Below, piece after piece: positions 1 through 56,299 of a stretch of DNA of 64,000 nucleotides. Origin of the DNA: Lamellibrachia satsuma. Its lineage: Eukaryota; Annelida; Polychaeta; Sabellida; Siboglinidae. Under the pieces are notes generated by a model. It was not told the origin of the DNA, did not search any database, and saw only the letters and a list, made by a program, of their open reading frames with translations. The stretch's first letter is position 1, and every line of letters begins with the position of its first letter. The position numbers and the translations under genes were made by a program. The stretch covers positions 1,670,001 through 1,734,000 of the forward strand of contig BSQZ01000073.1 of the NCBI GenBank assembly GCA_033239005.1. Direction: 5' to 3'.

Positions 1-4682
<4,682 letters not shown>

Positions 4683-6899: not shown

Positions 6900-7080
6900 G
6901 TTCGTTCTGCTTCGTGTCAAGTGCTTCACTATGGAACACTGCACTGTGACACCAAGAATTATTACAGCAACAATCAAGTCAAAAGGAAGAAACGTCAGTG
7001 TGATTCAGTGCTATGTTCCAACAAACAGTGGTAATGAATATGCAGATCAAGAGTTCTACGACAGACTGCACATTGTACTG
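6900..7080 (+). mobile_element. LINE endonuclease fragment
   Basis: The frame from 6931 reads RIITATIKSKGRNVSVIQCY then VPTNSGNEYADQEFYDRL. This is the middle of an apurinic-type endonuclease domain of non-LTR retrotransposons (pattern RII.A……..IQCYAPTN…..FY..L). No reverse transcriptase follows; instead the segment passes directly into the 61-bp array. The clade cannot be assigned from so short a piece. Confidence 0.6.
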
Positions 7081-22278: not shown

Positions 22279-22300
22279 AAGTGCAGGGGGTTACCTAGAG

Positions 22301-32363: not shown

Positions 32364-32656
32364 ATGGCAGAAGACAAACACCAGGTAACAAAAGCGGACA
32401 GCTCCCGTCGGCGTCATAATTATAGGAGCCGGAAAAGACGGGCCAAAAATAATACGGCGCCGTTGCTTCTCTCTCGTCTTCCCGATGATGTCCTGTACCA
32501 GATCATGTCGTTTTGCAACCTGCAAGACCTTGGCAGGTTGGCTCAGACCTGTCACCGCCTGACATATCTGGTAGGTCAGGACTGGACTTGGACGTGCATG
32601 AGTCGTCGATTAACCATGATCAGAGATTACACGAAGTCCAAGGACGTCGACCACGG
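32364..32656 (+). CDS. FBXW4: FBXW4-like exon 1 (start codon, F-box)
   Basis: A basic N-terminus (SRRRHNYRSRKRR, a possible nuclear localisation signal) precedes the F-box at about residues 36-80, with LPDDVLYQIMSF and LGRLAQTCHRL. The donor is gtagga at 32657, phase 2. Confidence 0.92.
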
Positions 32657-35600: not shown

Positions 35601-38600
35601 AATCTGCTTCCCTTTCTAGTTTTATTTCATAAGCCTGAATAGATTCTTTAACATATAAAATAACTCGCCTTCCCCTTCTTCCTATTCTGTCTCTCCTAAA
35701 CATTACGTATCCTGTCAATCCTAATTCAGCATCTGTTATGTCTGTGTTGGCCCATGGTTCAGCAATACCAATTATGTGAGGGTCAGTATCTTCTATCATA
35801 ATGTTTAATTTGTTTTTTAACTATACTCCTAGCATTTAAACACACGCATCTATAACCTGCTTCAGACATGTAGGGATATATCTTGACGTGATATGGTAAC
35901 CTGTACAAAATGGTACTTAGTCCTAGTCGTTACACATACATAGTAGAGTCATAGTATTAGTAAGTTACTAGTTAATGCCATAGTGACAGGATTTGGATGT
36001 TTTGGGCCGAACCAGTCATTTTCGCAACCGGTGAACTGTGAAATGTTCTTGCTCGCATGGGCCGAATCAACTGTGGACCTTATTTAATATTACCTTCATT
36101 ATATTTTTATTTGACCAACTTAACTATTTGCCACATGTATTTTGTAACTGGGAAATGTTATACGCTAAATTATTAGCGTTTTCGAACAAATATTCTAATT
36201 AATTAATTCTAGCTAATTTTGTAATTAATACACATTTCCTTAGGCATTAATTACTTCAGTTTTTATCATTATTTTATTATGTCAAGTGCTTTCTGTTACT
36301 TGGTGGATTTTGCTCTATAATAATTATATAGTATAATTGCAATATTAGCATGTGTTTTGTGTGCAATCTTAATTTTTTTTTTTCGAATCAGGTTGTTGGC
36401 CGAAACAACTATTCTTAGAATTCCACTACTTAATATTCTGCTACTAGCATGGCTGAATCAACCGTAGCTGAATTAAAAGCCGACATGGTTTTCAGCATAT
36501 TGGGCCAAACCCTCCGTCTCCATGGGCTGAACTGACTGGGCAGAACCATCCGTCGGCGTAGGTCGATCCAGTTATGTGCTGAACCATCCATGACCCAAAG
36601 TGACTTAGTCTCTTAAATACTCTCTTAGACTTAATAACTAACCTTAAGTTACTTACCTACTTAACCATGCCTTAACTTAACCATTGTGCTACAGGTTAAA
36701 AAATCCAAGACTTCGTATGGCTTGGTGGCTGTGGTAGAACGTCAGACTGTCGGTCGAGAAGACAGGTTGGAACCCTGCTGCCGTTTCTAAACTTGGGCAG
36801 TTTTATTCACCCCATTTTGGCTTTGCCTGTGTCATTTGGAAGAGATACTAAACACCAGGGCTGGGTCCAATTACACAAAATTATATCAATTACAATTACA
36901 TTTTAAAAAAAAATCAATTACAATTACAGTCATAATTTTCCAAATCAATTACAATTACACTGTTTCAATTTCAATTACAATTACATTATGCGGAACCAAA
37001 TATATTCAGCATTTGTTAATTATGTATTTTTGCACGTTTTGCTGAATTTCAATATTTTGTACACAATTGATAAAGAAATATAACGGTAATGTTTGTACAT
37101 TTTGTTGAATTGTGATTTTGAATTATACTAAATAAAAAGATAGCCGTTTAAAACATATTTTTATTATATAAAAATACAATGCAATATCCAGATGTAATCC
37201 TACAGGACATATTCCAATACAGACATTTAGCCGTGCGCATTTCTTAAATTTTTCTTTGGAAAATACTAATAATAGGGTATGATGTGTTTACTTTGAGGTT
37301 GTAGCTCCTACTCTAAGCTGACATTCTTAATTGGTCTGCCATTTGCCTTGTGTGAATTGGGAATGGGAAGAGAGGCCATATAAATGGTCCTTGCCACTTG
37401 ACCTGTCTCCAACCCACCACAACACAAGGGGTGTAATTGGCTTGCTAACTCTGCAATGTTTCACTGAGCTGATATTTTCTGAAGCAATATCAGGCTACAG
37501 GTCTTTCCATGTTGTTTGAATACCAGCTTAGCCTTTGTCTGACAATGTCTGTGCATTGTTTATTGCTTCCTGGCTGTTACCAACTTACTGAAAAGGCTAA
37601 TTGCTAAGGCTACCCACCACAAGCACCACTGAATACTGAGACTTAAATATAAATATATAAGCAGGTGTTATTATTAGCCTTGATTTTCAACTCATGTGAG
37701 ACTTAAATTATATTTTTATTGACAATTCGTTCAGGTAGTTTGTGATATGAAACATACTGTAATTGATTGTAATTGAAATAAATTTTCAATTTAATATACA
37801 AAATATAACAATTACAATTACAGCAACATTTCGAAACCATAATCAATTACAATTACACAATTTTGTTGTAATCAATTACAATTACACAATTGGACCCAGC
37901 CCTGCTAAACACCATTGGTTCTTTCTAACTGGTGTCTATGCCACAGAAAATAAAAGAACACACACAGAGAAATGGTAAAAACGTGTTGTCAATGCCTCAC
38001 AGAACTGGTGATCTTGATCTGTAAACTTATTACTACTATTATTCTGTGCCTCTCAATTTAGCTTTAGTTCACCTCAGTCGACAGTCTGAGGTTCTGCTGA
38101 TGAGCCACCGTGCTCCAGGCTATAGTTACGACATGTTTACTGTTTTGTTAATAAATAATGACTGTGTTTAGAGTATACCTTTAGTCTAAATACTAAGGCT
38201 AAGACATTGCCGTAACTGTACCCACAGCCTAATAAATAACCTAGCAATGACTGTGGTTAGAGTATACCTTTAGTCTAAATACTAAAGCTAAGACATTGCC
38301 GTAACTGTACCCACAGCCTAATAAATAACCTAACAATGACTGTGGTTAGAGTATACCTTTAGTCTAAATACTAAAGCTAATACATTGCCGTAACTGTACC
38401 CACAGCCTAATAAATAACCTAACAATGACTGTGTTTAGAGTATACCTTTAGTCTAAATACTAAAGCTAATACATTGCCGTAACTGTACCCACAGCCTAAT
38501 AAATAACCTAACAATGACTGTGTTTAGAGTATACCTTTAGTCTAAATACTAAAGCTAAGACATTTCCGTAACTGTACCCACAGCCTAATAAATAACCTAA

Positions 38601-41600
38601 CAATGACTGTGGTTAGAGTATACCTTTAGTCTAAATACTAAAGCTAAGACATTGCCATAATTGTACCCACAGCCTAATAAATAACCTAAGAAAGTATGTT
38701 GGAAACTTTCAAGTGAAATACTGATGTTTGATTGCAGCTCTTCCAAGGGGATGACGTTGCGAGACCAGTGCCACACTGCCCTTAACTGGAGCTCCGGCAC
38801 TGCCACTTTGACTCACCTTGTCCGTTATAATGTCAAGTAAATGCTACTTCTACACTAACTTTAGACAGTTTAGTTACTGTTATGTAGGTACATATATTTT
38901 AAATACTAAAAGTAGCTAAACTCAAAATTGTGATGCATGTATTCACCACCACCACTACCCCTGCTTAGACAGTTACACTTCTGGTTACGTATCGAATGAA
39001 ACAACCTGTTTACTTTTATGTATCATTCTTTAGCTTCACAATGGCCACCTTATTTGGCTAGCCTTTTATACAACAGTCATTCAAGACAATTTTAATATTT
39101 AATGTAAAGCACCTCGAGTAGTTTATAGCTTGATTTGGTGCTGTATAAGTGCAATTTTATGATTACTTTCCTGCATCTTTCCAACATCCTCGTTGGTTCC
39201 CCAGGCAGCTGAAATCATCTCACAACAACTTGTTGTTCCTATAACTAAGCTTAACCTGGGCAAGCATCCTCTGTATTTCCACCCAACATCCATGGCGGTT
39301 CTTTGCTCTTATGATGGCTTAACATATCTGGTTTTTTGCGTCTCAGAGCTCAGATTCCTGAGAATTTATGCTTAACATATCTGGTTTGTTGCGTCTCAGA
39401 GCTCAGGTTCCTGAGAATTTATGCGCTGTATAAGTTTATTGTTATTAATATGTGCGAACATTTATAGATTTTATTATTTTAAATATTGGTCTCAAAATTC
39501 TGAACAGGTAGCATTTTTAATACAGATTTTAATGTAGGTCACATATATGACGAGCAAATATTATAGAGTGGTTAACATTTGTGTTTTTTAGACAGTTGCC
39601 ATGGATACAGTTAGACAAAGACAACTTGTGGGTGTCGTACCTCAACACTATTCGATGTTACCCCCGCAAGGGGTGCGGAGGCATCGAGGCTGAGAACCAA
39701 GCCAAGGCTCTCCAAGGTCACAGAGTTGACGTACGGCGATTTGTGTCCAAGAGTGGGCTTGTGGTCAGTGGAGCGTGGTGAGTCGGCTGAGTAAATAAAG
39801 CTCAGTTTTTTGCTCATCTCATTTTAGAAACATTTCGACAAAAATCAAACCTGTCTAGTATAGGCCATGACAGGCGCTACTCTGTTTGTGCATCAGCCAT
39901 GACAGGCAACCTCGTTTGTGTATTGGCTGTGACACGCTACCTCGTTTGTGTATCGGCTGTGACACGCTACCTCGTTTGTGGATCGGCTGTGACATGCTAG
40001 CTCGTTTGTGTATCAGCTGTGACAGACTACCTCGTTTGTGTATCGGCTGTGACACGCTACCTCGTTTGTGTATCGGCTGTGACATGCTAGCTCATTTGTG
40101 TATTGGCTGTGACATGCTACCTCGTTTGTGTATCAGCTGTGACACGCTACCTCATTTGTGGATCGGCTGTGACATGCTAGCTCGTTTGTGTATCGGCTGT
40201 GACACGCTACCTCTTTTGCGTATCGGCTGTGACACACTACCTCGTTTGTGTATCGGCTGTGACAGACTACCTCGTTTGCATATCGGCTGTGACAGGCTAC
40301 CACGTTTGTATATCGGCTGTGACAGGCTACCTCATTTGTGTATTGGCCATGACAGGCTACCTCGTTTGTGTATTGGCCGTGACAGGCTACCTCGTTTGTG
40401 TATTGGCCGTGACAGGCTACCTCGTTTGTGTATCGACCATGACAGGCTAGCTCATTTGTGTATGGGCTGTGACATGCTAGCTAATTTTTGTATCGGCCTT
40501 GACTCGTTTGCTACCTCGTTTGTGTATCGTAGCTTATTTGTGTATCGGCCTTGACAGGCTAGCTCATTTGTGTATCGGCTGTCACATGCTAGCTCGCTTG
40601 TGTATCAGCTGTGACAGGCTAGCTCATTTGTGTATCGGCTGTGACATGCTAGCTCACTTGTATATCGGCTGTGACAGGCTAGCTCATTTGTGAATCGGCT
40701 GTGACATGTTAGCTCACTTGTGTATCAGCTGTGACAGGCTAGCTAATTTGTGTATCGGCTGTGACATGCTAGCTCACTTGTGTATCGACTGTGACATGCT
40801 AGCTCACTTGTGTATCGGCTGTGACAGGCTAGCTCATTTGTGTATCGGCTGTGACATGTTAGCTCACTTGTGTATCAGCTGTGACGGGCTAGCTTGTTTG
40901 TGTATCAGCTGTGATGTGCTACCTCGTTTTTGTATTGGCTGTGATATGCTACCTCGTTTGTGTATTGGCTGTGATATACTACCTCGTTTGTGTATCGGCT
41001 GTGATATGCTACCTCGTTTGTGTATCGGCTGTGATATGCTACCTCGTTTGTGTATCGGCTGTGATATGCTACCTCGTTTGTGTATCGGCTGTGATATGCT
41101 AGTTCATTTGTGCACAGTTTTTATTTTAATTTTGACGAAATCATTGGAAAAACTATTAAATTATTTTGTACCAGATATGGTCAGAATTTGGTAATAAAAG
41201 GACAAAAGTAGCCTGGTTCTACATATGGCTATTCAATAGTATTCACACGTTACCCAATCTAACAATCACAGTCAATTCTTTCAATGATTTTAACAAAAGT
41301 CTGCACACTCTTTTTTTAACTGACACCATATTACTTAAACTATTCACATAATACATATTTGAACATAAATTAACCTGGTTTATGATAGGCTAAGTGAGAT
41401 GAGGAAGAAGGTTTAACTGGACAACAAGTTTTCACCAACAGTTTACTATTATGCACTCGTTATTTATGGACAAAATAGATAAAATTTTAAATGGCAACTA
41501 ATGCCGTGCTAGATGTTTTTCATTCACTTCATGCATATTTTAATTAATTTATGATTCAACATTGTTTTCACATATTTCCTATAATAAATGTAACTGAACT

Positions 41601-44600
41601 GTAGGCCTGTTGTTGTAGTTGGGTATTTGTCTTCACAATGTCAAGTTATCATTGTGCAACATGATTTCCTGATTTGAACCAGTCTCTGCGAGTTTGGTAA
41701 TTTTAATTTTCATAAATATTCTCAGATATTTTGCCTTCATCATCTGGGAAATAAAGCAAGATTCTTGTAGGATTTGACTGTGACAGAGGTGTATTTATTT
41801 ATTGTTGTCATTGCTGCAGTGACGGCAGTATCAGTTGTTTCCTCGCCGACAGTGGTAGATGTATAGGGAGACTCACCCAGTGTCATAGCAGCGACATCCA
41901 TGCCGTTGACTTTCACACGGACTCGGTGATTGTTTCTGGCTCAAGAGACAGTACTATCAAGGTAAGTGTAGTTACTGGTCACCTGTTAAGTTCTGATAGT
42001 GCATTGTCTTCGTAAGACTGGTTTACACAGTAATTTTTGTTCCAGGTGACACCATGTTACATGATACTGCCAACTAAATTATATGTGCGTTTAGACGAGC
42101 AACATGTCTTGACACTGCAACCGTGATTTCAATTCATGCCACTCCAAATTTGAACTTTGATGAAAGGTTATGACAGGGTCACCTGCCAGTTGCTAATTGG
42201 CCTCTTGGCGAGACCAATCTCTGTTCTCCTGACACATTCAGGGTAAACTCTTGGCGAGACCAATCTCTGTTCTCCTGACACAATCGGTAAACTGTTGGTG
42301 ATACCAATCTTACTTCTCCCGACACAATCAGGGTAAACTCTTGGTGATACCAATCTCACTTCTCCCGACACAATCAGGGTAAACTCTTGGCAAGACCAAT
42401 CTCACTTCTCCCGACACAATCAGGGTAAACTGTTGGTGAGACCATTCTCACTTCTCCCGACACAATCAGGGTAAACTCTTGGCAAGACCAATCTCAGTTC
42501 TCCCGACACAATCAGGGTAAACTCTTGGTGATACCAATCTCACTTCTCCCGACACAATCAGGGTAAACTCTTGGTGATACCAATCTCACTTCTCCCGACA
42601 CAATCGGTAAACTCTTGGCAAGACCAATCTCACTTCTCCTGACACAATCAGGGTAAACTCTTGGTGATACCAATCTCACTTCTCCCGGCACAATCAGGGT
42701 AAACTCTTGGCAAAACCAATCTCAGTTCTCCCGACACAATCAGGGTAAACTCTTGGCGAGACCAATCTCTGTTCTCCTGACACAATCGGTAAACTGTTGG
42801 TGATACCAATCTTACTTCTCCCGACACAATCAGGGTAAACTCTTGGTGATACCAATCTCACTTCTCCCGACACAATCAGGGTAAACTCTTGGCAAGACCA
42901 ATCTCACTTCTCCCGACACAATCAGGGTAAACTGTTGGTGAGACCATTCTCACTTCTCCCGACACAATCAGGGTAAACTCTTGGCAAGACCAATCTCAGT
43001 TCTCCCGACACAATCAGGGTAAACTCTTGGTGATACCAATCTCACTTCTCCCGACACAATCAGGGTAAACTCTTGGTGATACCAATCTCACTTCTCCCGA
43101 CACAATCGGTAAACTCTTGGCAAGACCAATCTCACTTCTCCTGACACAATCAGGGTAAACTCTTGGTGATACCAATCTCACTTCTCCCGGCACAATCAGG
43201 GTAAACTCTTGGCAAAACCAATCTCAGTTCTCCCGACACAATCAGGGTAAACTCTTGGCAAGACCAATCTCAGTTCTCCCGACACAATCAGGGTAAACTC
43301 TTGGTGATACTAATCTCACTTCTCCCGACACAATCAGGGTAAACTCTTGGCGATACCAATCTCACTTCTCCCGACACAATCAGGGTAAACTCTTGGCAAG
43401 AGTTATTAAGCGGACACAGCATTTTGCTGATAGTGAGATAATTTAAACTTGAAGTTTGCACTCAGTTATTAACATTTGTTTGCTACTAGTTGATATGATG
43501 ATATCCTGTGTAGCATTGCTAAAGATGGATGTTTTTATGCCAGAAATCCGTCATTGTATATGCCTGAGTGATATCAACTAACTTAACTGTGCAGACTTGA
43601 CACGTCAGGTGGCGCCGAACTTTCAGGGATTTATTTACGACCCCAGGAAGGATCTGTAACATTAAATTTGTTCAAGATTCACCCCACTGTTTACATTTTG
43701 TAGAATCACCCTTTCTAGATTATTTGCAATGCTATGTCTGTTTTCAACTATGCATGTTTTCAATGATAGTTCCAAGTGATCTAAGCCATCTTCTGTCATG
43801 TTTGTGTACGTGTTGCCCTCTGGCACATAATATCAAACGGATCAGTGTACGTTTACTTAACTTGGAACAATCATAGAAAACATGCATAGCATTGCGAACA
43901 GGGTTGGCAGAAACTGTGCAGCAAACATACTTTTTCCCCTAGTTTCTGCCGTTATGAAGGAAACTCCCAAAATGGTCATATCTTGATGGTTTAATTTATT
44001 TATTTTATTATCAGGATTAACATCTGCTGTCCACAGAGGCAGACACTTTTGGCCTGTCACCCTCTCAGTCCACAGAGGCAGACACTTTGGCTCCTGTCAC
44101 CCTCTCAGTCCACAGAGGCAGACACTTAGGCTCCTGTCACCCTCTCAGTCCACAGAGGCAGACACTTTGGCTCCTGTCACCCTCTCAGTCCACAGAGGCA
44201 GACACTTTGGCTCCTGTCACCCTCTCAGTCCACAGAGGCAGACACTTAGGCTCCTGTCACCCTCTCAGTCCACAGAGGCAGACACTTTGGCTCCTGTCAC
44301 CCTCTCAGTCCACAGAGGCAGACATGTCTTATCAGCTCACACAAACATGGATACAATAGCATTAGCAACTGAAGTGTTAAACCATGATGAAAAGACAGAC
44401 CAGTGCAACAGTGGCCTGCTGTTGAATCCTTGTCAACCAACAGAAGAATTATAACACACGACTGTCACACATACAGGCAACATACAGAAAGTTATTGACA
44501 TCATATTTTCTTTAAAAAAGGTAACCTGGTGATTACTTTGAAGAGCTGGACAAGGCTAAACATAAAAATATTCATTATAAATTTAATCAGGCCTAATCAC

Positions 44601-47600
44601 TCAGTGATTATGTATGCAGTGTCATGCATTATTGATGCAGACACAAAAAAAACAGTCCAAAGTACATGTCACTATCCTGTGAAATATTGTTCTGTCATAT
44701 ACTATGACATGCACTAATATTTTTGGCTTTATTTATATGATTCCATAAAAGAGACTGAAATTTAACATTTGTTGTATATAAATATGAATGCACCACAAAT
44801 ATATGTACATCAGTACTGTAAACATTGATAAAATTATATACTGTATTAATCAAAGTTATAGTAGCTTAATATTACAGAAGCTTTTATAACTGGTCACATT
44901 TGTCAACCAATTACATGTATTCTCTATTATTGCCGTTTCTGCCTGGCAGAAACCATTTCTGCCTAGCTGTAATACTTTTCTCCCCTATTTCTGCCATAGG
45001 CACAACATAAATACCTTTCTCCCCTGTTTCTGCCGTTGGCACAACATAAATACTTTTCTCCCCTGTTTCTTCCGTTGGTACAACATAAATACCTTTCTCC
45101 CCTGTTTCTACCGTTGGCACAACATAAATACGTTTCTCCCCTGTTTCTGCCGTTGGCTCAACATAAATACTTTTCTCCCCTGTTTCTGCCGTTGGTACAA
45201 CATAAATACCTTTCTCCCCTGTTTCTGCCATTGGCACAACATAAATACCTTTCTCCCCTGTTTCTGCCATTGGCTCAACATAAATACCTTTCTCCCCTGT
45301 TTCTGCCATTGGCTCAACATAAATACCTTTCTCCTCTGTTTCTGCCATTGGCACAACATAAATACCTTTCTCCCCTGTTTCTGCCATTGGCTCAACATAA
45401 ATACCTTTCTCCCCTGTTTCTGCCATTGGCACAACATAAATACCTTTCTCCCCTGTTTCTGCCATTAGCTCAACATAAATACCTTTCTCCCCTGTTTCTG
45501 CCATTGGCACAACATAAATACCTTTCTCCCCTGTTTCTCCCATTGGCTCAACATAAATACCTTTCTCCCCTGTTTCTGCCATTGGCACAACATAAATACC
45601 TTTCTCCCCTGTTTCTGCCGTTGGCACAACATAAATACCTTTCTCCCCTGTTTCTGCCGTTGGCAAAACATAAATACCTTTCTCCCCTGTTTCTCCCATT
45701 GGCTCAACATAAATACCTTTCTCCCCTGTTTCTGCCATAGGCACAACATAAATACCTTTCTCCCCTGTTTCTGTCGTTGGCACAACATAAATACCTTTCT
45801 CCCCTGTTACTGCCATCAGTAGGGCAGCAATACATTGTAAGTAATAAATACAAATTGCTGCCAAGTAATACTATTTGTTGAATAGAAATCATTGCCTCTT
45901 TCTTAGACGTCAATAAAGAAACTTTCATTCAGCAGGTATGTTCGTGCAATAAACGTGTCGCTAACCGTGACATGTTTTCATTAGCTTTGTCATGTGTCCT
46001 TGTAGCTGTGGCGTCTGCCTGGCAGCGACAGCTGTGACGTCCTCCTGCACACGGAGCAGATCGGGGACCGCGTGTGGTCAGTGGCCATGAGTCCAGTTGG
46101 AAGGTCAGTTGACACAAGTGTGTATTCTATGTTTCCTGGTGGCCATAAATCAACAAACATCAGTAGATACAAGAGAAGACTAGTATTAAAGACTAGTATT
46201 AAAGACTAGTATTAAAGACTAGTGTTAAAGACTAGTATTAAAGACTAATATTAAAGACTAGTATTAAAGACTAGTGTTAAAGACTAGTATTAAAGACTAG
46301 TATTAAAGACTAGTGTTAAAGACTAGTGTTAAAGACTAGTGTTAAAGACTAGTATTAAAGACTAGTATTAAAGACTAGTGTTAAAGACTAGTGTTAAAGA
46401 CTAGTGTTAAAGACTAGTGTTAAAGACTAGTGTTAAAGACTAGTGTTAAAGACTAGTATTAAAGACTAGTATTAAAGACTAGTATTAAAGGGACCGGCAA
46501 GAATTTAGGGTGGAAATGCAATTTTGAATAAATATTTCTTGAATTTTATTTGCGCAAGGTTGCTAGATTTACAGAGAATTTTACTGTGATGTGGAGTTTA
46601 CCCCAGATTTTGAGTACAGCCACACAGAAACATTTGTCCAGGTTGAGCTTTGTTTTAGGGAAAAAATATGTTGTCAGATTGATGATCTACGTGTTGTGTA
46701 AATGCTAGAAGTGTGAATATGTTTAAAAACAACGGGTTACACATAGGTGAAACATTTTTGGACTCTTAATAAACCAATGGCTTCTTTGTCCACTTGGGTG
46801 GCACATCTGAAAAAGGCATAACCCAAAATGGCAAATACTAAAAAGGCATAACCAAAATGGCAAATACTAAAATGGCACATACAAAAATGGCACATACTAT
46901 AATTGCACTACAGCAGTAAGGACAAAAATGGCACATTTGAATATAAGGACTTAGAGCAGTTCCTCCGTAGTGCTATAAGGACTTAGAGCAGTTCCTCCAT
47001 AGTGCTATAAGGACTTAGAGCAGTTCCTCCGTAGTGCTATAAGGACTTAGAGCAGTTTCTCTGTAGTGCTATAAGGACTTAGAGCAGTTCCTCCGTAGTG
47101 CTATAAGGACTTAGAGCAGTTCCTCCGTAGTGCTATAAGGACTTAGAGCAGTTCCTCCGTAGTGCTATAAGGACTTAGAGCAGTTCCTCCGTAGTGCTAT
47201 AAGGACTTAGAGCAGTTCCTCCGTAGTGCTATAAGGACTTAGAGCAGTTCCTCCGTAGTGCTGGACACAACATGCGAGTAAACAGAGGGCTCAAATAAGA
47301 TCTCATCATGAACAATTACATTTTTCATTATTTTGATGTGATGAAACAGAACAATTCTGTGGACACACATGTAACCAGAGATGTTTCATGTCATTAAACT
47401 ACTACTGTGATACTGAAATGTGTAATTTTCATCAACATTTATGTTTATTTCTTTGTGGCTTTATGGTGGAGCACCCCATCTCTCTCTCATCAGCCCTCTC
47501 AGTTCTGTTCATAAACCATATTGACACACGTCTTTATGGTGAGGCGCCCCAACCCTCTCTCATCAGTCATGTCAGTTCTGTTCATAAACCATATTGACAC

Positions 47601-49870
47601 ACGTCTTTATGGTGGAGTGCCCCAACCCTCTCATCAGTCCTGTCAGTTGTGTTCATAAAACATATTGACACACGTCTTTATGGTGGAGCGCCCCAACCCT
47701 CTCTCATCAGTCATGTCAGTTCTGTTCATAAACCATATTGACACACGTCTTTATGGTGGAGCGCCCCAACCCTCTCTCATCAGTCCTGTCAGTTCTGTTC
47801 ATAAACCATATTGACACACGTCTTTATGGTGGAGCGCCCCAACCCTCTCTCATCAGTCCTTTTAGTTGTGCTCATAAAACATATTGACACACGTCTTTAT
47901 GGTGGAGCGCCCCAACCCTCTCTCATCAGTCATGTCAGTTCTGTTCATAAACCATATTAACACGTCTTTATGGTGGAGCGCCCCAACCCTTTCTCATCAG
48001 TCATGTCAGTTCTGTTCATAAACCATATTGACACGTCTTTATGGTGGAGTGCCCCAACCCTCTCTCATCAGTCCTCTCAGTTCTGTTCATAAACCATATT
48101 CACACGTCTATGGTGGAGCACCCCAACCCTCTCTCATCAGTCCTCTCAGTTCTGTTCATAAACCATATTGACACACGTCTTTATGGTGGAGCGCCCCAAC
48201 CCTCTCTCATCAGTCATGTCAGTTCTGTTCATAAGCCATATTGACACACGTCTTTATGGTGGAGCGCCCCAACCCTCTCTCATCAGTCCTGTCAGTTCTG
48301 TTCATAAACCATATTCACACGTCTATGGTGGAGCGCCCCAACCCTCTCTCATCAGTCCTCTCAGTTCTGTTCATAAACCATATTGACACGTCTTTATGGT
48401 GGAGCGCCCCAACCCTCTCTCATCAGTCATGTCAGTTCTGTTCATAAACCATATTGACACATGTCTTTATGGTGGAGTGCCCCAACCCTCTCTCATCAGT
48501 CATGTCAGTTCTGTTCATAAGCCATATTGACACACGTCTTTATGGTGGAGCGCCCCAACCCTCTCTCATCAGTCCTGTCAGTTCTGTTCATAAACCATAT
48601 TCACACGTCTATGGTGGAGCGCCCCAACCCTCTCTCATCAGTCCTCTCAGTTCTGTTCATAAAACATATTGACACACGTCTTTATGGTGGAGCGCCCCAA
48701 CCCTCTCTCATCAGTCATGTCAGTTCTGTTCATAAACCATATTGACACACGTCTTTATGGTGGAGCGCCCCAACCCTTTCTCATCAGTCATGTCAGTTCT
48801 GTTCATAAACCATATTGACACACGTCTTTATGGTGGAGCGCCCCAACCCTTTCTCATCAGTCATGTCAGTTCTGTTCATAAACCATATTGAAACACGTCT
48901 TTATGGTGGAGCGCCCCAACCCTCTCTCATCAATCCTGTCAGTTCTGTTCATAAACCATATTAACACGTCTTTATGGTGGAGCGCCCCAACCCTCTCTCA
49001 TCAGTCCTCTCAGTTCTGTTCATAAACCATATTGACACGTCTTTATGGTGGAGCGCCCCAACCCTCTCTCATCAGTCCTCTCAGTTCTGTTCATAAACCA
49101 TATTGACACGTCTTTATGGTGGAGCGCCCCAACCCTTTCTCATCAGTCCTGTCAGTTCTGTTCATAAACCATATTGAAACACGTCTTTATGGTGGAGCGC
49201 CCCAACCCTTTCTCATCAGTCCTGTCAGTTCTGTTCATAAACCATATTGAAACACGTCTTTATGGTGGAGCGCCCCAACCCTTTCTCATCAGTCATGTCA
49301 GTTCTGTTCATAAAACATATTGACACACGTCTTTATGGTGGAGCGCCCCAACCCTTTCTCATCAGTCATGTCAGTTCTGTTCATAAAACATATTGAAACA
49401 CGTCTTGTAATCAGTAGATGATTTGTTCCACCCTTTTATTTTCGTCATCAGGTCGTACGTTGTTGGCACGGCAGGTCTTCATGACGCGTCACCACTCAGA
49501 CTCTGGGACATAGAGACGTAAGTGTCACTCTAAACATAACAAATATTGCTTGTATCGTTCATATTATGCTTGAATAAGAGAGAACCCGGAAATTACATCA
49601 GTGGAGGACAGTATGTAGTTACCTACACTTGTTCGCAACACTGCTTGTTTTCTACGATTGTTACATTAATCTCTGTGAAACGTCTGCATAAGTTCCTTCG
49701 TATGATACAAATGCTTCATGAAATCTTGTCTCCTGAGAAACTACCATAGATCAGAAGAACCAGCTGTGAGAATGCTATCAGTTATCACATTTAGTTGTAT
49801 ATGCAGAACCGAAACCACTGGAAGAAAATCATCACGTCACCACATTGTCATTAAGTGAACGACGTAAGTA

Positions 49871-49961
<91 letters not shown>

Positions 49962-52900
49962 CTCTGTGTGTATAGTTGAGGATTGTAATACTGTGAAGGT
50001 ATTTTATTTGGCTAAAAGTTGCTTTTTAAAAATTATTGGAACTTGCAGCAACCATGTCATATAAACTTTAATAAGGCACTTCTACTCTGCTGTTGCCAGG
50101 GCAACGTTGACCGGTGCGATGGGTCAACACTACAGGTACGGTGCTGGGGTATTGGACGTCCAGTTTGAGTCGCCTGACATTGTCCTGTCCTGCGGCTACG
50201 ACACCTGTGTGAGGCTGTGGGATCTACGGCAGTCTCTCCACAAATGGTCAGTACTAGCCGGTCACTTCACTGCTTGCCTTGGTCAGTACTAGACGGTCAC
50301 TTCACTGCTTGCCTTGGTCAGTACTAGACGGTCACTTCACTGCTTGCCTTCATTTCTTTTCCTTGCCAGTTTTCCCACCAGTATTGTCTTCCAGTCCATT
50401 GTGCCTCTTAATGTGAACAAAATAACTGGTATATAGTTCTAATTCACGAGATGGCTAAAGTACAGTGTCAAATCCGTTTGTTTCAGTGTACAGATGTGGG
50501 AGGAGCCGTTTGACTCTTCGCTGTACAGTGTCAAATCCGTTTGTTTCAGTGTACAGTTGTGGGAGGAGCCGTTTGACTCTACGCTGTACAGTGTCAAATC
50601 CGTTTGTTTCAGTGTACAGTTGTGGGAGGAGCCGTTTGACTCTACGCTGTACAGTGTCAAATCCGTTTGTTTCAGTGTACAGTTGTGGGAGGAGCCGTTT
50701 GACTCTACGCTGTGCAGTGTCAAATCCGTTTGTTTCAGTGTACAGTTGTGGGAGGAGCCGTTTGACTCTACGCTGTGCAGTGTCAAATCCGTTTGTTTCA
50801 GTGTACAGATGTGGGAGGAGCCATTTGACTCTACGCTGTACAGTGTCAAATCCGTTTGTTTCAGTGTACAGTTGTGGGAGGAGCCGTTTGACTCTACGCT
50901 GTGCAGTGTCAAATCCGTTTGTTTCAGTGTACAGTTGTGGGAGGAGCCGTTTGACTCTACGCTGTGCAGTGTCAAATCCGTTTGTTTCAGTGTACAGTTG
51001 TGGGAGGAGCCGTTTGACTCTACGCTGTGCAGTGTCAAATCCGGTTGTTTCAGTGTACAGTTGTGGGAGGAGCCGTTTGACTCTACGCTGTGCAGTGTCA
51101 AATCCGTTTGTTTCAGTGTACAGTTGTGGGAGGAGCCGTTTGACTCTACGCTGTGCAGTGTCAAATCCGTTTGTTTCAGTGTACAGTTGTGGGAGGAGCC
51201 GTTTGACTCTACGCTGTGCAGTGTCAAATCCGTTTGTTTCAGTGTACAGTTGTGGGAGGAGCCGTTTGACTCTACGCTGTGCAGTGTCAAATCCGTTTGT
51301 TTCAGTGTACAGATGTGGGAGGAGCCGTTTGACTCTACGCTGTGCAGTGTCAAATCCGTTTGTTTCAGTGTACAGATGTGGGAGGAGCCGTTTGACTCTA
51401 CGCTGTGCAGTGTCAAATCCGTTTGTTTCAGTGTACAGTTGTGGGAGGAGCCGTTTGACTCTACGCTGTGCAGTGTCAAATCCGTTTGTTTCAGTGTACA
51501 GTTGTGGGAGGAGCCGTTTGACTCTACGCTGTGCAGTGTCAAATCCGTTTGTTTCAGTGTACAGTTGTGGGAGGAGCCGTTTGACTCTACGCTGTGCAGT
51601 GTCAAATCCGTTTGTTTCAGTGTACAGTTGTGGGAGGAGCCGTTTGACTCTACGCTGTGCAGTGTCAAATCCGTTTGTTTCAGTGTACAGATGTGGGAGG
51701 AGCCGTTTGACTCTACGCTGTGCAGTGTCAAATCCGTTTGTTTCAGTGTACAGTTGTGGGAGGAGCCGTTTGACGCTACGATGTGCAGTGTCAAATCCGT
51801 TTGTTTCAGTGTACAGTTGTGGGAGGAGCCGTTTGACTCTACGCTGTGCAGTGTCAAATCCGTTTGTTTCAGTGTACAGTTGTGGGAGGAGCCGTTTGAC
51901 TATACGCTGTGCAGTGTCAAATCCGTTTGTTTCAGTGTGCAGTTGTGGGAGGAGCCGTTTGACTCTACGCTGTGCAGTGTCAAATCCGTTTGTTTCAGTG
52001 TACAGTTGTGGGAGGAGCCGTTTGACTCTATGCTGTACCATGTCAAGTCTGTTTGTTTCAGTGTACAGTTGTGGGAGGAGCCGTTTGACTCTACGCTATA
52101 CTGTGTTAAATCTGATGGTCTTCAGACCATCATAGCAGGCACAGCAAGACATGGCATGGTTCGTGTGTGGGACAAACGCATGAGTGAGGCAGTGCAGGTA
52201 AAACTGATGTAGTGCACACTAGTGTGTTGACCAGGCCTGTGTGTCATGTCACCTGTCTAGTCAACACAATAGTGCACACTAATGTGTTGACTAGGCCCGT
52301 GTGTCACATAACCAGTCTATCACCCTTATTGTTCTGTGTAGTGCACACTAGTGTTTTGACCAGGGCCATGTGTCATGTCACTAGTCTATCACCCTTATTG
52401 TTCTGTGTAGCGCACATTAGTGTGTTGACCAGGCCCATGTTGCATGCCACCAGTCTATCACCCTTATTGTTCTGTGTAGTGCGCACTAGTGTGTTGACCA
52501 GGCCCGTGTCATGTCATCAATCTATCACCCTTATTGTTCTGTGTACTGCGCACTAGTGTGTTAACCAGGCCCATGTGTCATGTTACCAGTCTATCACCCT
52601 TATTGTTCTGTGTAGTGTGCACTAGTGTGTTGACCAGGCCCATGTGTCATGTTACCAGTCTGTCACCCTTATTGTTCTGTGTAGTGTGCACTAGTGTGTT
52701 AACCAGGCCCATGTGTCATGTTACCAGTCTATCACCCTTATTGTTCTGTGTAGTTTGCACTAGTGTGTTGACCAGGCCCATGTGTCATGTTACCAGTCTA
52801 TCACCCTTATTGTTCTGTGTAGTGCGCACTAGTGTGTTGACCAGGCCCATGTGTCATGTCACCAGTCTATCACCCTTATTGTTCTGTGTAGTGCGCACTA

Positions 52901-54143
52901 GTGTGTTGACCAGGCCCATGTGTCATGTTACCAATCTAATACCCTTATTGTTCTGTGTAGTGCGCACTAGTGTTTTGACCAGGCCCATGTGTCATGTTAC
53001 CAGTCTATCACCCTTATTGTTCTGTGTAGTGCGCACTAGTGTGTTGACCAGGCCCATGTGTCATGTCACCAGTCTATCACCCTTATTGTTCAGTGTAGTG
53101 CACACTAGTGTGTTGACCAGGCCCATGTGTCATGTAACCAGTCTATCACCCTTATTGTTCTGTGTAGTGCGCACTAGTGTGTTGACCAGGCCCATGTGTC
53201 ATGTAACCAGTCTATCACCCTTATTGTTCTGTGTAGTGCGCACTAGTGTGTTGACCAGGCCTGTGTGTCATGTAACCAGTCTATCACCCTTATTGTTCTG
53301 TTATATCTTCATTGAAAAACTAATGTACGGTCTGGATTATTATAAAATAGAACTTAGCAGATATGGACCACAATCAAGACTGAATGGCAGCTGTTCTAAA
53401 CTATGCATGTGATGTTACTGATATCTTAGTTTTAAAAGTACAAATTCTGATCAGTCTTTATTGTATGATCATGTTATACAATATAAACTATAAATGTAAT
53501 TTAAGGGTATTAATGATCTGCCCATCACATGACCCCGTGATTCAAACTTTGTTGACAGGACACGTATTAGAAATAATCACCAGCTGTGAGTGAATGTACG
53601 GAACGGCTGATATTTATAGTTAATGGTCAGATTATATACAAAAATGATTCTTTAAAACATATTTCATTTGGGTGGTTATGTTAGAATATATATAGTTTAT
53701 GCTGTATAATATGATTAGAATAGATATAGTTTATGCTGTATAATATGATAAGAATATATATAGTTTATGCTGTATAATATGATTAGAATATAGTTTATGC
53801 TGTATAATGATTTAAATATATATTGTTTATGCTGTATAAAATGATTTAAATATATATAGTTTATGCTGTATAATATGATTAGAATAGAGTTTTTGTTGTA
53901 TAATATATATATATATATATATATAGTTTATGCTGTATAATGATTAGAATATAGTGCTGTATAATATGTCCATTCTCTGTAAGTACAACATTCTGACAGG
54001 GCCATTCGTTGTTTCAGATGTATTACCTGGGTCGGTGGAGTAGTCCCGTCTACTCTCTCGCATATGACACCTCCCATCTCTACGTCGCCCTCGACAAGGG
54101 CGTCGAACGACTAGACTTCGGCATTTCTCCCTCGGTGTATTGA
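32364..54143 (+). CDS. FBXW4: FBXW4-like F-box/WD40 protein, complete (nine coding exons)
   Basis: Predicted SCF ubiquitin-ligase substrate receptor: the F-box would bind SKP1 and the WD40 propeller the substrate. Coding exons: 32364-32656, 38738-38836, 39592-39777, 41820-41961, 46006-46103, 49452-49517, 50100-50246, 52062-52197, 54018-54143. All introns are GT–AG, phases agree, and the total is 1293 nt (430 aa plus stop), close to the human protein as I recall it (412 aa). Recognition points: F-box LLSRLPDDVLYQIMSFCNLQ (exon 1), QLPWIQLDKDNL (exon 3), VIVSGSRDSTIK (exon 4), DRVWSVAMSPVG (exon 5), GVLDVQFESP and LSCGYDTCVRLWDLR (exon 7), LWEEPFDSTLYCVKSDG (exon 8), SSPVYSLAYDTSHLYVAL (exon 9). 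The start ATG is the first in the frame with the F-box about 40 residues downstream. Introns are packed with minisatellites and transposons; exon 8 is preceded by 26 copies of its own acceptor region. Confidence 0.93.
32657..33200. other. Start of FBXW4-like intron 1, nothing recognised
   Basis: Unique AT-rich sequence between exon 1 and the antisense CR1-like copy. Confidence 0.4.
33205..35868 (-). mobile_element. CR1-like retrotransposon, 5'-truncated ORF2 copy, antisense in FBXW4 intron 1
   Basis: On the minus strand it runs from the start of the endonuclease (IIGIAEPWANTDITDAELGL, near 35790) through RT blocks (NYRPVSLTSVVCKLL, LSGVPQGSVLGP, LKFADDTKVF) to a C-terminus ending in IRAGYT and the shared 3' tail at about 33205-33290. 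It has multiple frame breaks and at least one internal deletion between the NYRP and GVPQG blocks (near 34280-34360). It diverges clearly from the 20.2-25.25 kb copy, so it is an independent, older or different-subfamily insertion. Confidence 0.9.
35869..36714. other. Intron 1 spacer
   Basis: Short gccgaa/gaac-type degenerate strings around 36000-36600 but no clear array, gene or element. Confidence 0.4.
36715..38000 (+). mobile_element. tRNA-derived SINE-like unit interrupted by a hAT MITE
   Basis: 36719-36785 resembles a tRNA: an A-box-like tggctgtggtagaacg, an anticodon-arm-like region, and a B-box-like ggttggaaccc about 45 bp later. The sequence following (…gccgtttctaaacttgggcag…) continues after the MITE at 37913 with cattggttctttctaactgg. 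The right limit is uncertain. No second copy in the window confirms the family. Confidence 0.5.
36856..37904. mobile_element. hAT-type non-autonomous element (MITE-like), perfect 8-bp TSD
   Basis: Ends CAGGGCTGGGTCCAATT (36856) and AATTGGACCCAGCCCTG (ending 37904), a perfect 17-bp inverted repeat. The 8-bp CTAAACAC flanks both sides (36848-36855 and 37905-37912). Subterminal regions are rich in caattacaattaca. No intact transposase. The perfect duplication indicates an insertion that has not been rearranged. Confidence 0.93.
38157..38692. repeat. 89-bp minisatellite, six copies
   Basis: The unit contains agagtatacctttagtctaa and cattgccgtaactgtaccca. It ends about 45 bp before FBXW4-like exon 2. 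Confidence 0.95.
38738..38836 (+). CDS. FBXW4: FBXW4-like exon 2 (divergent)
   Basis: Acceptor tttgattgcag ends at 38737; donor gtaaat at 38837. Encodes SKGMTLRDQCHTALNWSSGT and on to LVRYNV. The NW…G…..L.RY spacing matches the human linker between F-box and propeller. Phase 2 at both ends joins correctly (GG|C, AA|A). It is the least conserved exon, so it rests on splice sites, phase and spacing. Confidence 0.72.
39095..39170 (+). repeat. Possible L2-type LINE/SINE 3' tail
   Basis: The pattern gtaaagcacctcgag followed by ggtgctgtataagtg resembles the conserved stem of L2/MIR-like 3' ends. A similar gcgctgtataagtttatt lies at 39424-39441 after a 52-bp direct duplication (39320-39423). Confidence 0.4.
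39592..39777 (+). CDS. FBXW4: FBXW4-like exon 3
   Basis: Acceptor gtgttttttag ends at 39591; donor gtgagt at 39778. It encodes QLPWIQLDKDNLWVS, then a variable loop, then LQGHRVDVRRFVSKSGLVVS, the first WD-type blade (GH…V…F…….VSG). Confidence 0.9.
39865..41108. repeat. 30-bp minisatellite, ~41 copies
   Basis: The unit contains ctcgtttgtgtatcggctgt and gacatgctac/gacaggctag variants, beginning about 88 bp after the exon 3 donor. Variants are grouped: lacctc-type (acctcgtttg) at both ends and agctca-type in the middle (about 40540-40900), indicating block-wise expansion. Cysteine-rich open frames here are by-products of the 30-bp period. Confidence 0.96.
41113..41345 (+). repeat. Dispersed repeat, unnamed family (copy 3, longest)
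   Basis: Contains aaatcattggaaaaactatt (compare aaatcattggacaaactgtt at 63071) and agtcaattctttcaatgatt (compare 1398 and 16862). 41346-41819 is otherwise unremarkable intron. Confidence 0.45.
41820..41961 (+). CDS. FBXW4: FBXW4-like exon 4
   Basis: Acceptor attgctgcag, donor gtaagt. Encodes DGSISCFLADSGRCIG then HAVDFHTDSVIVSGSRDSTI, the second WD repeat; SGSRD is shared with the human protein. Confidence 0.92.
42175..43405. repeat. 46-bp minisatellite with a ~502-bp higher-order repeat
   Basis: The unit contains gggtaaactcttggtgatac and acttctcccgacacaatca. Ordered variant monomers at 42251-42752 recur in the same order at 42753-43254, so an 11-monomer block was duplicated as a whole. The array lies in intron 4 about 210 bp past exon 4. 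Confidence 0.95.
43406..44030. other. Intron 4 spacer, nothing recognised
   Basis: Unique sequence between two arrays; no element or exon evidence. Confidence 0.4.
44035..44325. repeat. 40-bp minisatellite, seven copies
   Basis: The unit contains cctctcagtccacagaggca; variants acttt/actta recur in a pattern suggesting duplication of multi-unit blocks. Confidence 0.95.
44330..44930. other. Intron 4 spacer, nothing recognised
   Basis: AT-rich unique sequence. Confidence 0.4.
44935..45825. repeat. 39-bp minisatellite, ~22 copies
   Basis: The unit contains aaatacctttctcccctgtt and gccattggcacaac. On the minus strand a 317-codon frame (45864-44911) runs through it: a hydrophobic start (MAAICIYYLQCIAALLMAV), then repeats of ETGEKGIYVVPMA, then a short unique end. 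Differences between units are mostly amino-acid changing, so I see no sign of protein-level selection and do not call a gene. Confidence 0.95.
46006..46103 (+). CDS. FBXW4: FBXW4-like exon 5
   Basis: Acceptor gtccttgtag, donor gtcagt. Encodes LWRLPGSDSCDVLLHTEQIG then DRVWSVAMSPVG, completing one WD blade (…TIK|LW) and starting the next. Confidence 0.92.
46175..46490. repeat. 13-bp minisatellite, ~24 copies
   Basis: gactagtattaaa with gt/at variants, starting about 70 bp after the exon 5 donor. Confidence 0.96.
46691..46797 (+). mobile_element. CR1-like 3'-end fragment
   Basis: Contains gtgtgaatatgtttaaaaac (the FKNK codons of ORF2), cggg-ttacacatagg and aaaccaatggcttctttgtc from the shared tail. 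Followed to 46930 by short degenerate aaatggcacatact repeats. Confidence 0.85.
46935..47260. repeat. 32-bp minisatellite, ten copies
   Basis: The unit contains aaggacttagagcagttcct and ccgtagtgct; very homogeneous. Confidence 0.96.
47455..49408. repeat. ~72-bp minisatellite, ~27 copies
   Basis: The unit contains tttatggtggagcgccccaa and cagttctgttcataaaccat, with length variants of about 67-73 bp. It ends 43 bp before FBXW4-like exon 6. Confidence 0.95.
49452..49517 (+). CDS. FBXW4: FBXW4-like exon 6
   Basis: Acceptor ttcgtcatcag, donor gtaagt. Encodes SYVVGTAGLHDASPLRLWDI, a WD-dipeptide repeat end aligned with FVTGTACCGHFSPLRIWDL of the human protein. Confidence 0.92.
49518..50099. other. 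FBXW4-like intron 6 with (TA)n tract
   Basis: Unique sequence apart from a ta microsatellite at about 49871-49958. Confidence 0.6.
50100..50246 (+). CDS. FBXW4: FBXW4-like exon 7
   Basis: Acceptor ctgttgccag. Encodes YGAGVLDVQFESPDIVLSCG and YDTCVRLWDLRQSLHK; donor gtcagt at 50247 in phase 2 (TG|T joins to exon 8 as Cys). The donor region is tandemly triplicated. Confidence 0.93.
50245..50349 (+). repeat. 35-bp triplication spanning the exon 7 donor
   Basis: tggtcagtactag starts at 50245, 50280 and 50315, followed each time by cggtcacttcactgcttgcc. Each copy has a gtcagt donor. Using the second or third would add 35 or 70 nt and run into a TAG. Confidence 0.95.
50463..52110 (+). repeat. 63-bp minisatellite made of the exon 8 acceptor and exon edge, 26 copies
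   Basis: The tttcag acceptor ends at 50486 and recurs every 63 bp to 52061 (25 intervals, 1575 bp, no indel). Each unit has 12 bp of intron end (cgtttgtttcag) and about 51 bp of exon 8 start (tgtacagttgtgggaggagc…). The exon frame is open across the whole array (21 residues per unit, WEEPFDSTL core). Only the last unit continues into the real WD exon. Confidence 0.97.
52062..52197 (+). CDS. FBXW4: FBXW4-like exon 8 (last-acceptor version)
   Basis: Encodes VQLWEEPFDSTLYCVKSDGL then IAGTARHGMVRVWDKRMSE; donor gtaaaa at 52198, phase 0. The human version reads WEEPHDSTLYCLQTDG, so the last acceptor gives the conserved protein. Earlier acceptors would add 21 residues each, in frame. Confidence 0.92.
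52211..53300. repeat. 69-bp minisatellite, ~16 copies
   Basis: The unit contains gcgcactagtgtgttgacca and tctatcacccttattgttc. It starts only about 13 bp after the exon 8 donor. Confidence 0.95.
53675..53960. repeat. ~35-bp AT-rich tandem repeat
   Basis: Irregular copies of tatagtttatgctgtataat with an internal ta run, ending about 57 bp before exon 9. 53301-53674 is unique intron. Confidence 0.88.
54018..54143 (+). CDS. FBXW4: FBXW4-like exon 9 (terminal)
   Basis: Acceptor cgttgtttcag. Encodes WSSPVYSLAYDTSHLYVALD and ends FGISPSVY with TGA; matches the human SSPVYCL…HLYAAL…LDF end. It closes the propeller. Confidence 0.92.
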   Translation: MYYLGRWSSPVYSLAYDTSHLYVALDKGVERLDFGISPSVY

Positions 54144-55343: not shown

Positions 55344-56299
55344 TCACACGAAGCTCACTTGAATGTCCCCATTTGCCTCGCATTCGGCAAACACGAGATT
55401 CTTCTTAGTCTTCTGTTGTCCGTCACTGTCTACCTTGTCAGCGACCCATTTCTTCAGTATCGACACTGTCGTCGTCGGTGCAGCATCGCTCGTCTCTGAT
55501 GACGCGGCCTCGGGACTACTCTCCGACCCAAGGATGAGGTCGTGGGTTGTCGGACTAGGCGTCGACGGTTCTGTGTCCATTACACTAATTTCACCGTCGG
55601 TAAACAGTGGCAAGAAGCGGTTGCCGATGACGTCCCGATCGCCGTAGGATGATGTTGGATTGGGAATGGAATCGACCTCCATTGCGTCGTCGGTTGGCGT
55701 CACCCTGCACTGCATCGCTTGACACTTGAAGTCGTCCGTGTTGTTCGCACAAAACTCCGATGACAAACTTTTGCATGCCCCTTCCAACCCCTGCTGGAGG
55801 AGGGGTGGCTGACCCGAACTCGGCCCTAATGACCTACTGGGTATCTGTGTCCTCATGTAGATCTGCAGCGATCCCCCGTTTGCTCGGCTTTCTCTATCAC
55901 GGCCGACACATTGGTTTGTGAAGTCGGGAGGTGCGGCCTGTCCAAGAGGTCGGGTGAAATACGCCTCAGCCTCGTCGTGGCCAGGCAGAATACCGTCCTG
56001 ACTGAAACTCTGGTCCATGAACTGTATCTGGGCGCCAGATGACAGCGTGCTCGTGTCATTGACAGCCGTCAAGCCGAGACACGAATGTCTAGCCCGATTG
56101 TCGTCCTTAAGGTGGGGGTGGAAGGCACCGAGGCAGTACGCAGACACGGTGGACTCCCTCGAGGGGGAGGGTGGTCGGGGATCCTCAGGACGCTGGGGTT
56201 TGAGGAAGTCAGGCAGCTGAAGGTCGTGGGGTTTCAGGCCCCGCTGGTCGTCCAACTGCCGACCCTGAACCCTTGACAACAGCTCCAGGAATCGTTCGT
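55344..56299 (-). CDS. RGS12/14-like terminal exon (GoLoco)
   Basis: Minus-strand acceptor gccttcag; two bases complete the Asp codon split from the previous exon. GoLoco occupies the first ~35 residues; the rest has no domain I recognise. Confidence 0.85.

What the first reader, a model, noticed from the sequence alone, without database searches (positions are those of the whole stretch)
50463..52197. Twenty-six in-frame copies of a WD40 exon's splice acceptor
The 63-bp array before FBXW4-like exon 8 is made of the exon's own 3' splice site (last 12 intron bases) and first ~51 exon bases. The acceptors occur at exactly 63-bp spacing 26 times with no indel, and the exon's frame is open throughout. 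Any of the 26 acceptors joins the previous exon in the right phase, so the gene could in principle yield products with 0 to 25 extra 21-residue segments inside the propeller. Changes between copies are mostly amino-acid changing, which argues against protein selection; strict length may reflect recent homogenisation. From memory, and unchecked, minisatellites crossing exon borders ('mirages') were reported at an amphioxus Adh locus, so the class may not be wholly new, but this array's scale and frame neutrality look unusual.
Basis: partly seen in the sequence, partly recalled or inferred. Interest (0 to 1): 0.92.

Follow-up and report, generated by a model that had tools for sequence, protein, structure and literature searches.

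The report
Repeated splice acceptors in worm gene
In a marine worm's FBXW4 gene, the junction between an intron and the next exon has been copied into 26 nearly identical, evenly spaced splice sites that all keep the reading frame; similar arrays were seen at a few other genes of the same genome, so it looks like a neutral repeat type known from lancelets, but one that could reveal how cells choose among near-identical splice sites.

Summary
Twenty-six TTTCAG|TGTRCAG acceptors lie exactly 63 bp apart (50487-52062); all 25 upstream ones keep exon 8's frame open. The host is a complete nine-exon FBXW4 gene, 76% identical to that of the tubeworm Ridgeia, so an annelid, not amphioxus. The gapless Ridgeia match and the family-invariant Tyr-Cys mark the last acceptor as ancestral; all 25 copies lost the Cys. 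Frame neutrality shows no sign of selection: changes are 10 nonsynonymous to 4 synonymous, as neutral; random acceptor-spanning units are neutral in 28%; four other acceptor arrays of this genome (LRP2BP, coatomer alpha twice, a DAW1-like gene) leave only 1 of 38 upstream acceptors in an open frame. This is a 'mirage' minisatellite, a class known from amphioxus, here in an annelid and at several genes (5 of 80 screened WD40 matches, a lower bound). Most likely the exon-proximal acceptor is used through exon definition and the others are silent or leaky; no RNA evidence was available. An in-frame ladder of near-identical acceptors would show splice choice free of nonsense-mediated decay.

The parts
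32364..54143 (+). FBXW4 gene, 9 exons: 32364-32656, 38738-38836, 39592-39777, 41820-41961, 46006-46103, 49452-49517, 50100-50246, 52062-52197, 54018-54143 (430 aa)
   Evidence: spliced model with AG acceptors, GT donors and one open frame; 76% identity over 100% to Ridgeia piscesae P0001, itself a gene prediction; exon 7 found once in the 735-Mb assembly
50247..52061 (+). intron 7 as defined by the last acceptor (1815 nt); only 240 nt (50247-50486) if the first acceptor is used
50463..52112 (+). 63-bp minisatellite, 26.2 copies, spanning the 3' splice site of intron 7 and the first ~51 bases of exon 8
50487..52061 (+). 25 full units, each with 51 bases of exon copy, a branch-point-like TTGAC (A at -37 from the next acceptor), pyrimidine tract and AG
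   Evidence: branch-point site read at 5 of the 26 acceptors; the sequence around it is shared by all units
52062..52197 (+). real exon 8; keeps the Tyr and Cys that are invariant in 33 FBXW4 proteins
50442..50462 (+). left flank with candidate branch points CTAAT (-45) and TTCAC (-41) for the first acceptor
50245..50350 (+). 35-bp x3 array starting at the exon 7 donor (TG|GTCAGT three times); includes only 2 exon bases; not frame-neutral
1506..2224 (+). second acceptor-spanning array, 47/48 bp, 15 acceptors, at the LRP2BP exon starting 2197; mostly frame-breaking

Best explanation
It is a 'mirage' minisatellite: a tandem repeat seeded on the 3' splice site of FBXW4 intron 7 that grew by slippage or unequal exchange and was homogenised, in a genome where such arrays recur. 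Each unit carries a branch-point-like site, a pyrimidine tract, an AG and 51 bases of exon, so each is a complete-looking acceptor. Shown: the anatomy, the gene, the frame, neutral-like unit changes, and other arrays of the kind. Inferred: the growth process, and that the spliceosome mostly pairs the last acceptor (52062) with the exon 8 donor across a 136-bp exon (exon definition), giving the normal 430-residue protein. Leaky use of upstream acceptors would add in-frame 21-residue blocks in a loop of one propeller blade and would escape nonsense-mediated decay. The frame neutrality is luck.
For: Acceptor scores are 8.3 for 24 of the 25 array acceptors, 6.2 for one and 9.1 for the real one; the 10 other real acceptors scored 4.9-9.8 (human-like matrix written from recall). 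Distinct changes among the 25 units: 10 nonsynonymous, 4 synonymous, 0 stop, against neutral 71/24/5%. All 25 copies have lost the invariant Cys (Ser in 24, His in one) and 20 of 25 have Cys instead of the invariant Tyr, while the exon keeps both. The last-acceptor protein aligns to Ridgeia without a gap at the junction. Frame-breaking acceptor arrays occur at LRP2BP (1 of 14 upstream acceptors stays open), coatomer alpha (0 of 8 and 0 of 11) and a DAW1-like gene (0 of 5), so upstream acceptors there must be mostly unused or their products destroyed. Donor arrays occur at a POC1-like gene and at WDR3. Seven of eight FBXW4 introns exceed 700 nt; in large introns, sites closest across the exon are preferred (PMC9225289, abstract). 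Amphioxus mirages: RT-PCR suggested regular splicing (PMC3087553 passages). Among 115 hits of 525-1671 aa to the long form, none covers more than 15% of it.
Against: No RNA evidence at all. The first acceptor would make a 240-nt intron with a CTAAT site at -45, which under intron definition would be the preferred choice. In-frame products would escape decay, so appreciable use cannot be excluded. One search is a weak test: nothing closer than 76% to this FBXW4 was found, so transcripts of this species may simply not be in the database, and most of the 115 sequences were not read.
Confidence: 0.76

Rival explanations
1. An expressed isoform ladder: several or all of the 26 acceptors are used, so FBXW4 carries a variable number of 21-residue repeats, perhaps with a role.
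For: All 25 upstream acceptors are in phase and open; near-equal splice scores, a branch-point-like site in the unit, and no usable donor inside it (best 1.7 against 5.5-12.5 for 11 real donors); 240-nt intron for the first acceptor; the insertion point lies in a loop before strand 346-349 of the Ridgeia model. Eight units alone were modelled as a regular all-beta fold, best model mean pLDDT 92.8. A human minisatellite providing multiple splice donors is cited (Turri 1995, title seen in a reference list).
Against: Units change as neutral DNA and have lost family-invariant residues; other acceptor arrays in the genome break the frame; no repeat-bearing long FBXW4 came up. The repeat model is single-sequence on near-perfect repeats, the five models range from 92.8 down to 55.2, there is no shuffled control, and no PDB match reaches E<=0.001.
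Confidence: 0.14
2. Assembly artefact: the array length or regularity is wrong in the assembly.
For: PMC3087553 reports that one amphioxus mirage appears aberrantly assembled in the draft. Copy number cannot be checked without reads.
Against: The assembly is contiguous (735 Mb in 279 contigs); unit variants are interspersed (units 1, 6, 14, 15, 20 share one change), unlike a simple duplicated block; arrays of many periods occur nearby.
Confidence: 0.04
3. An intermediate of intron gain or of regulated splicing, with the array acting as a splicing decoy or seeding a new intron, as proposed for amphioxus globins.
For: Proposed for amphioxus globin mirages (PMC3087553 passages).
Against: No good donor in the unit, so no new intron is expected inside the array as it stands; no evidence of conservation.
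Confidence: 0.05

Closest known systems
'Mirage' minisatellites of amphioxus (Adh3, TnC, globins BflGb6 and BflGb9; PGBD5 duplications)
   Same: [quoted passage not shown] both 5' and 3' boundaries are affected; homogenised units (PMC3087553 and PMC3902484, passages).
   Different: Annelid instead of cephalochordate; 26 acceptors against the 3 and 6 units reported for the two BflGb6 haplotypes; strictly frame-neutral; seen at several genes in one small sample.
Human 6-16/IFI6 minisatellite providing multiple splice donor sites (Turri 1995; title seen in reference lists only)
   Same: A minisatellite that multiplies a splice site in a gene.
   Different: Donor side and, by its title, in a transcript; here acceptors, use unknown.
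Human internal tandem repeats at exon-intron boundaries in segmental duplications (PMC2812944, passages)
   Same: Minisatellite expansion at exon borders changing gene structure.
   Different: Variable repeats in duplicated human genes, on average 30-bp units repeated 4 times; here 26 copies, exon 7 of the gene found once in the assembly.
Earthworm metallothionein genes with minisatellites in the first intron (PMC12783039, passages)
   Same: Annelid genes with intronic minisatellites.
   Different: The passages seen describe repeats within the intron and separate tandem exon duplications, and do not say that repeats span a splice site.

Membership tests
Mirage minisatellite (splice-site-spanning tandem repeat) | tandem units that include both intron and exon sequence across one boundary | tested here: met
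   12 intron + ~51 exon bases per unit
Mirage minisatellite (splice-site-spanning tandem repeat) | copies carry the AG or GT splice signal | tested here: met
   26 acceptors with AG at exact 63-bp spacing
Mirage minisatellite (splice-site-spanning tandem repeat) | concerted evolution of inner units, diverged edge units (reported for BflGb6) | tested here: met
   13 of 25 units match the consensus exactly; unit 25 has 6 differences and unit 1 has 3 (inner unit 6 also has 3)
Mirage minisatellite (splice-site-spanning tandem repeat) | normal splicing of the mRNA despite the copies | not testable with these tools
   no RNA data; indirect support from frame-breaking arrays in other genes
Mirage minisatellite (splice-site-spanning tandem repeat) | length instability between alleles or somatic cells | not testable with these tools
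   one assembly, exon 7 found once, no second haplotype
FBXW4 (F-box/WD40 protein) | F-box followed by WD40 propeller, best match to FBXW4 proteins over the full length | tested here: met
   predicted propeller of the Ridgeia orthologue
Coding tandem repeat under protein selection | excess of synonymous change between units | tested here: not met
   10 nonsynonymous: 4 synonymous, neutral 71:24

The most novel reading that the evidence does not exclude
A working isoform ladder: the spliceosome draws on 26 near-identical in-frame acceptors, so that one gene yields FBXW4 proteins with 0-25 inserted 21-residue beta-rich repeats in a propeller loop, varying between individuals with array length. 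More generally, this annelid lineage generates splice-site arrays at many genes, some of which are converted into variable protein segments.
Probability: 0.12. Interest if true: 0.9.

Novelty: new member of a known kind. Interest (0 to 1): 0.6.

Why it matters
Choice among competing identical acceptors is usually studied in artificial minigenes, and in natural cases wrong choices can be hidden by nonsense-mediated decay (established knowledge). Here 26 near-identical acceptors with near-identical upstream context all give in-frame products, so ordinary long-read RNA data would show the distribution of choices directly, with frame-breaking arrays at LRP2BP and coatomer alpha in the same animal as controls. 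It also extends mirage minisatellites, which the passages seen report for cephalochordates, to an annelid.

Tried and rejected
Selection for frame: rejected by the substitution counts, by the chance level and by the frame-breaking arrays. Against that reading: the 48-bp units of the LRP2BP array resemble its exon more than the 47-bp ones, so its ancestral unit may also have been a multiple of 3 (sequence; inference).

Amphioxus as source: rejected; the best FBXW4 match is the annelid Ridgeia. The species was not identified.

Long FBXW4 isoform in the protein database: none covering more than 15% of the long form among 115 hits. Unit pattern in bacterial and archaeal genome contigs: 0 matches. 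PDB match for the modelled repeats: none at E<=0.001. Branch-point check: four of the five acceptor arrays have a yTnAy site at -23, -25, -37 or -45 from the last acceptor, the fifth has none; that motif is common, so I draw no conclusion.

Limits. Whether exon 8 or the unit occurs elsewhere in the genome is unknown: that search did not complete. Of the 149 WD40 matches listed, 80 were screened (48, 21, 11), in 34 stretches; two pairs share one open frame. Only arrays near these frames that looked suggestive were inspected by eye; other flagged arrays were not, and one at L025 stayed unclear, so 5 arrays (3 acceptor, 2 donor) is a lower bound. WD40 exons may not represent all exons. Acceptor counts for coatomer alpha and the DAW1-like gene come from fixed patterns and miss diverged copies (9 found where Tandem Repeats Finder gives 12.3 copies; a second pattern gave 0 of 7 open instead of 0 of 8). 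An earlier count for the 52-bp coatomer array used a wrong phase; one search repeats it with the right one, also 0 of 8. The splice-site matrices were written from recall.

Papers: passages only for PMC3087553, PMC3902484, PMC2812944, PMC12783039, PMC9921365, PMC10192322; reference-list passages of PMC4526556 and PMC2572611; abstract and outline for PMC9225289; all others as search listings. Searches that could have shown mirages were made; their listings named no annelid case, but the library holds only open-licence papers and listings are capped.

Full report
Observation. The window holds a 63-bp tandem array at 50463-52112 (26.2 copies, 97% matches, no indels). Twenty-six acceptors TTTCAG|TGTRCAG lie exactly 63 bp apart, first exon bases 50487 to 52062. 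The last is the real start of exon 8. Exon 8's frame is open from each of the 25 upstream acceptors.

Gene and organism. A complete nine-exon FBXW4 gene can be spliced from the window (430 residues, one open frame, AG and GT at every intron). The closest protein is a gene prediction from the vestimentiferan tubeworm Ridgeia piscesae, 76% identical over the full length; the next hits are 53% and below. The window therefore comes from an annelid, probably a siboglinid or close relative (inferred from this one gene), and not from amphioxus. It lies in a 735-Mb assembly of 279 contigs, in which exon 7 was found once.

Which acceptor is ancestral. The Ridgeia protein aligns without a gap across the exon 7/8 junction when the last acceptor is used. 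In 33 FBXW4 proteins the Tyr-Cys pair 357-358 (Ridgeia numbering) is invariant. Exon 8 keeps it. In the array the Cys is lost in all 25 copies (Ser in 24, His in one) and the Tyr reads Cys in 20. The copies are thus free of the constraint on the exon.

Is the frame selected? The distinct changes among the 25 units are 10 nonsynonymous, 4 synonymous and no stop; the neutral expectation from all single changes, transitions weighted double, is 71, 24 and 5%. Three of six frames are open over essentially the whole array and a fourth over most of it. If units of 4-40 intron and 10-80 exon bases are drawn at the 11 acceptors known in the window, 28% are frame-neutral and open, so that at least one of five arrays would be neutral in 81% of cases (this ignores later indels). 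Other arrays of the window lack indels although their period is not a multiple of 3.

Other arrays of the kind. In the window, a second acceptor array (47/48 bp, 15 acceptors, 1533-2197) sits at an exon of LRP2BP; the exon junction is fixed by a gapless 65% match to Capitella. Only 1 of its 14 upstream acceptors keeps an open frame. Of 22 junction queries (16 of FBXW4, 6 of LRP2BP, one of these set 3 bases off), only these two acceptors had repeated copies spanning the junction over 28 bases or more. A weaker 35-bp x3 array begins at the donor of exon 7 with 2 exon bases. Elsewhere, 80 of 149 WD40 matches were screened in 34 stretches. Five junction-spanning arrays were found: two acceptor arrays in a coatomer alpha gene (52 bp and about 75 bp), one acceptor array in a DAW1-like gene (44 bp), one donor array in a POC1-like gene (67 bp; the name is recalled, one search shows only other WD40 proteins) and one donor array in WDR3 (about 21 bp). 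In the three acceptor arrays 0 of 8, 0 of 11 and 0 of 5 upstream acceptors keep an open frame. Coatomer alpha is an essential protein (established knowledge), so its upstream acceptors must be mostly unused or their products destroyed.

Mechanism. The FBXW4 unit has a yTnAy site (TTGAC) 37 nt before the next AG, a pyrimidine tract and an AG, and scores like real acceptors of these genes; no GT in the unit approaches the real donors (1.7 against 5.5-12.5; matrices written from recall). Alternative products would therefore be left extensions of exon 8 by whole units. For sites in large introns, pairing across the shortest exon is favoured; in short introns, pairing across the shortest intron (PMC9225289, abstract). 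FBXW4 introns are 582-6081 nt, so exon definition and the last acceptor are expected. The first acceptor would make a 240-nt intron and has a CTAAT site at -45, so this is not certain. The choice is inferred, not shown.

Effect on the protein. In the AlphaFold2 model of the Ridgeia orthologue (mean pLDDT 89.5), the junction falls in the codon of Cys 344 (position from the alignment), in the loop between strands 331-336 and 346-349; by the usual propeller naming (recalled) that is the loop between strands c and d of one blade. Extra units would enter there. Eight units alone were modelled as a regular all-beta fold (best model pLDDT 92.8, the five models down to 55.2), but from a single near-perfectly repetitive sequence, without a shuffled control, and with no PDB match at E<=0.001, so I give this little weight.

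Comparison with what is known. Tandem repeats over exon-intron boundaries were reported in amphioxus Adh3, TnC, globin and PGBD5 genes and called mirages; both boundaries can be affected, units are homogenised, and RT-PCR suggested regular splicing (PMC3087553, PMC3902484, passages). A human minisatellite with multiple splice donors is on record (Turri 1995, title only). Earthworm metallothionein genes have minisatellites in the first intron; the passages seen do not say that they span a splice site (PMC12783039). The listings of my searches named no annelid mirage; the library is limited to open-licence papers. This array is thus a new member of a known kind, in a new phylum as far as seen, with more copies than the BflGb6 case, and the only one of five acceptor arrays here whose copies are all in frame.

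Verdict. It is best read as a neutral splice-site-spanning minisatellite with normal use of the last acceptor; the in-frame ladder is a lucky property that makes acceptor choice measurable.

Noticed in passing
window 1506-2224: Second acceptor-spanning array (15 acceptors; 8 of 14 spacings are 47 bp, 6 are 48) at an LRP2BP exon, mostly frame-breaking; the 47-bp units have lost one G relative to the exon.
   Followed up: yes
L023 3069-3707 and 4877-6099: Two acceptor-spanning arrays (52 bp, ~75 bp) at two exons of one coatomer alpha gene.
   Followed up: yes
L015 4638-5521 (- strand); L030 1657-1984 (- strand): Donor-spanning arrays in a POC1-like gene (67 bp; name recalled) and in WDR3 (about 21 bp).
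   Followed up: partly
L039 1214-1485 (- strand): Acceptor-spanning 44-bp array in a DAW1-like gene.
   Followed up: partly
window 1-64000: Tandem repeats (period >=10) cover 33.8% of the window against 15.6% and 16.9% in two sets of other stretches of the genome.
   Followed up: partly
window 7046-9730: 61-bp array of 44 copies with 0% indels, one of the longest arrays here.
   Followed up: no
window 21100-25148 and 33742-34260 (- strand): Open frames resembling LINE reverse transcriptase (recognised from recall, no family search run).
   Followed up: no
window 55344-56321 (- strand): A 325-residue open frame with a GoLoco-like stretch (recognised from recall).
   Followed up: no
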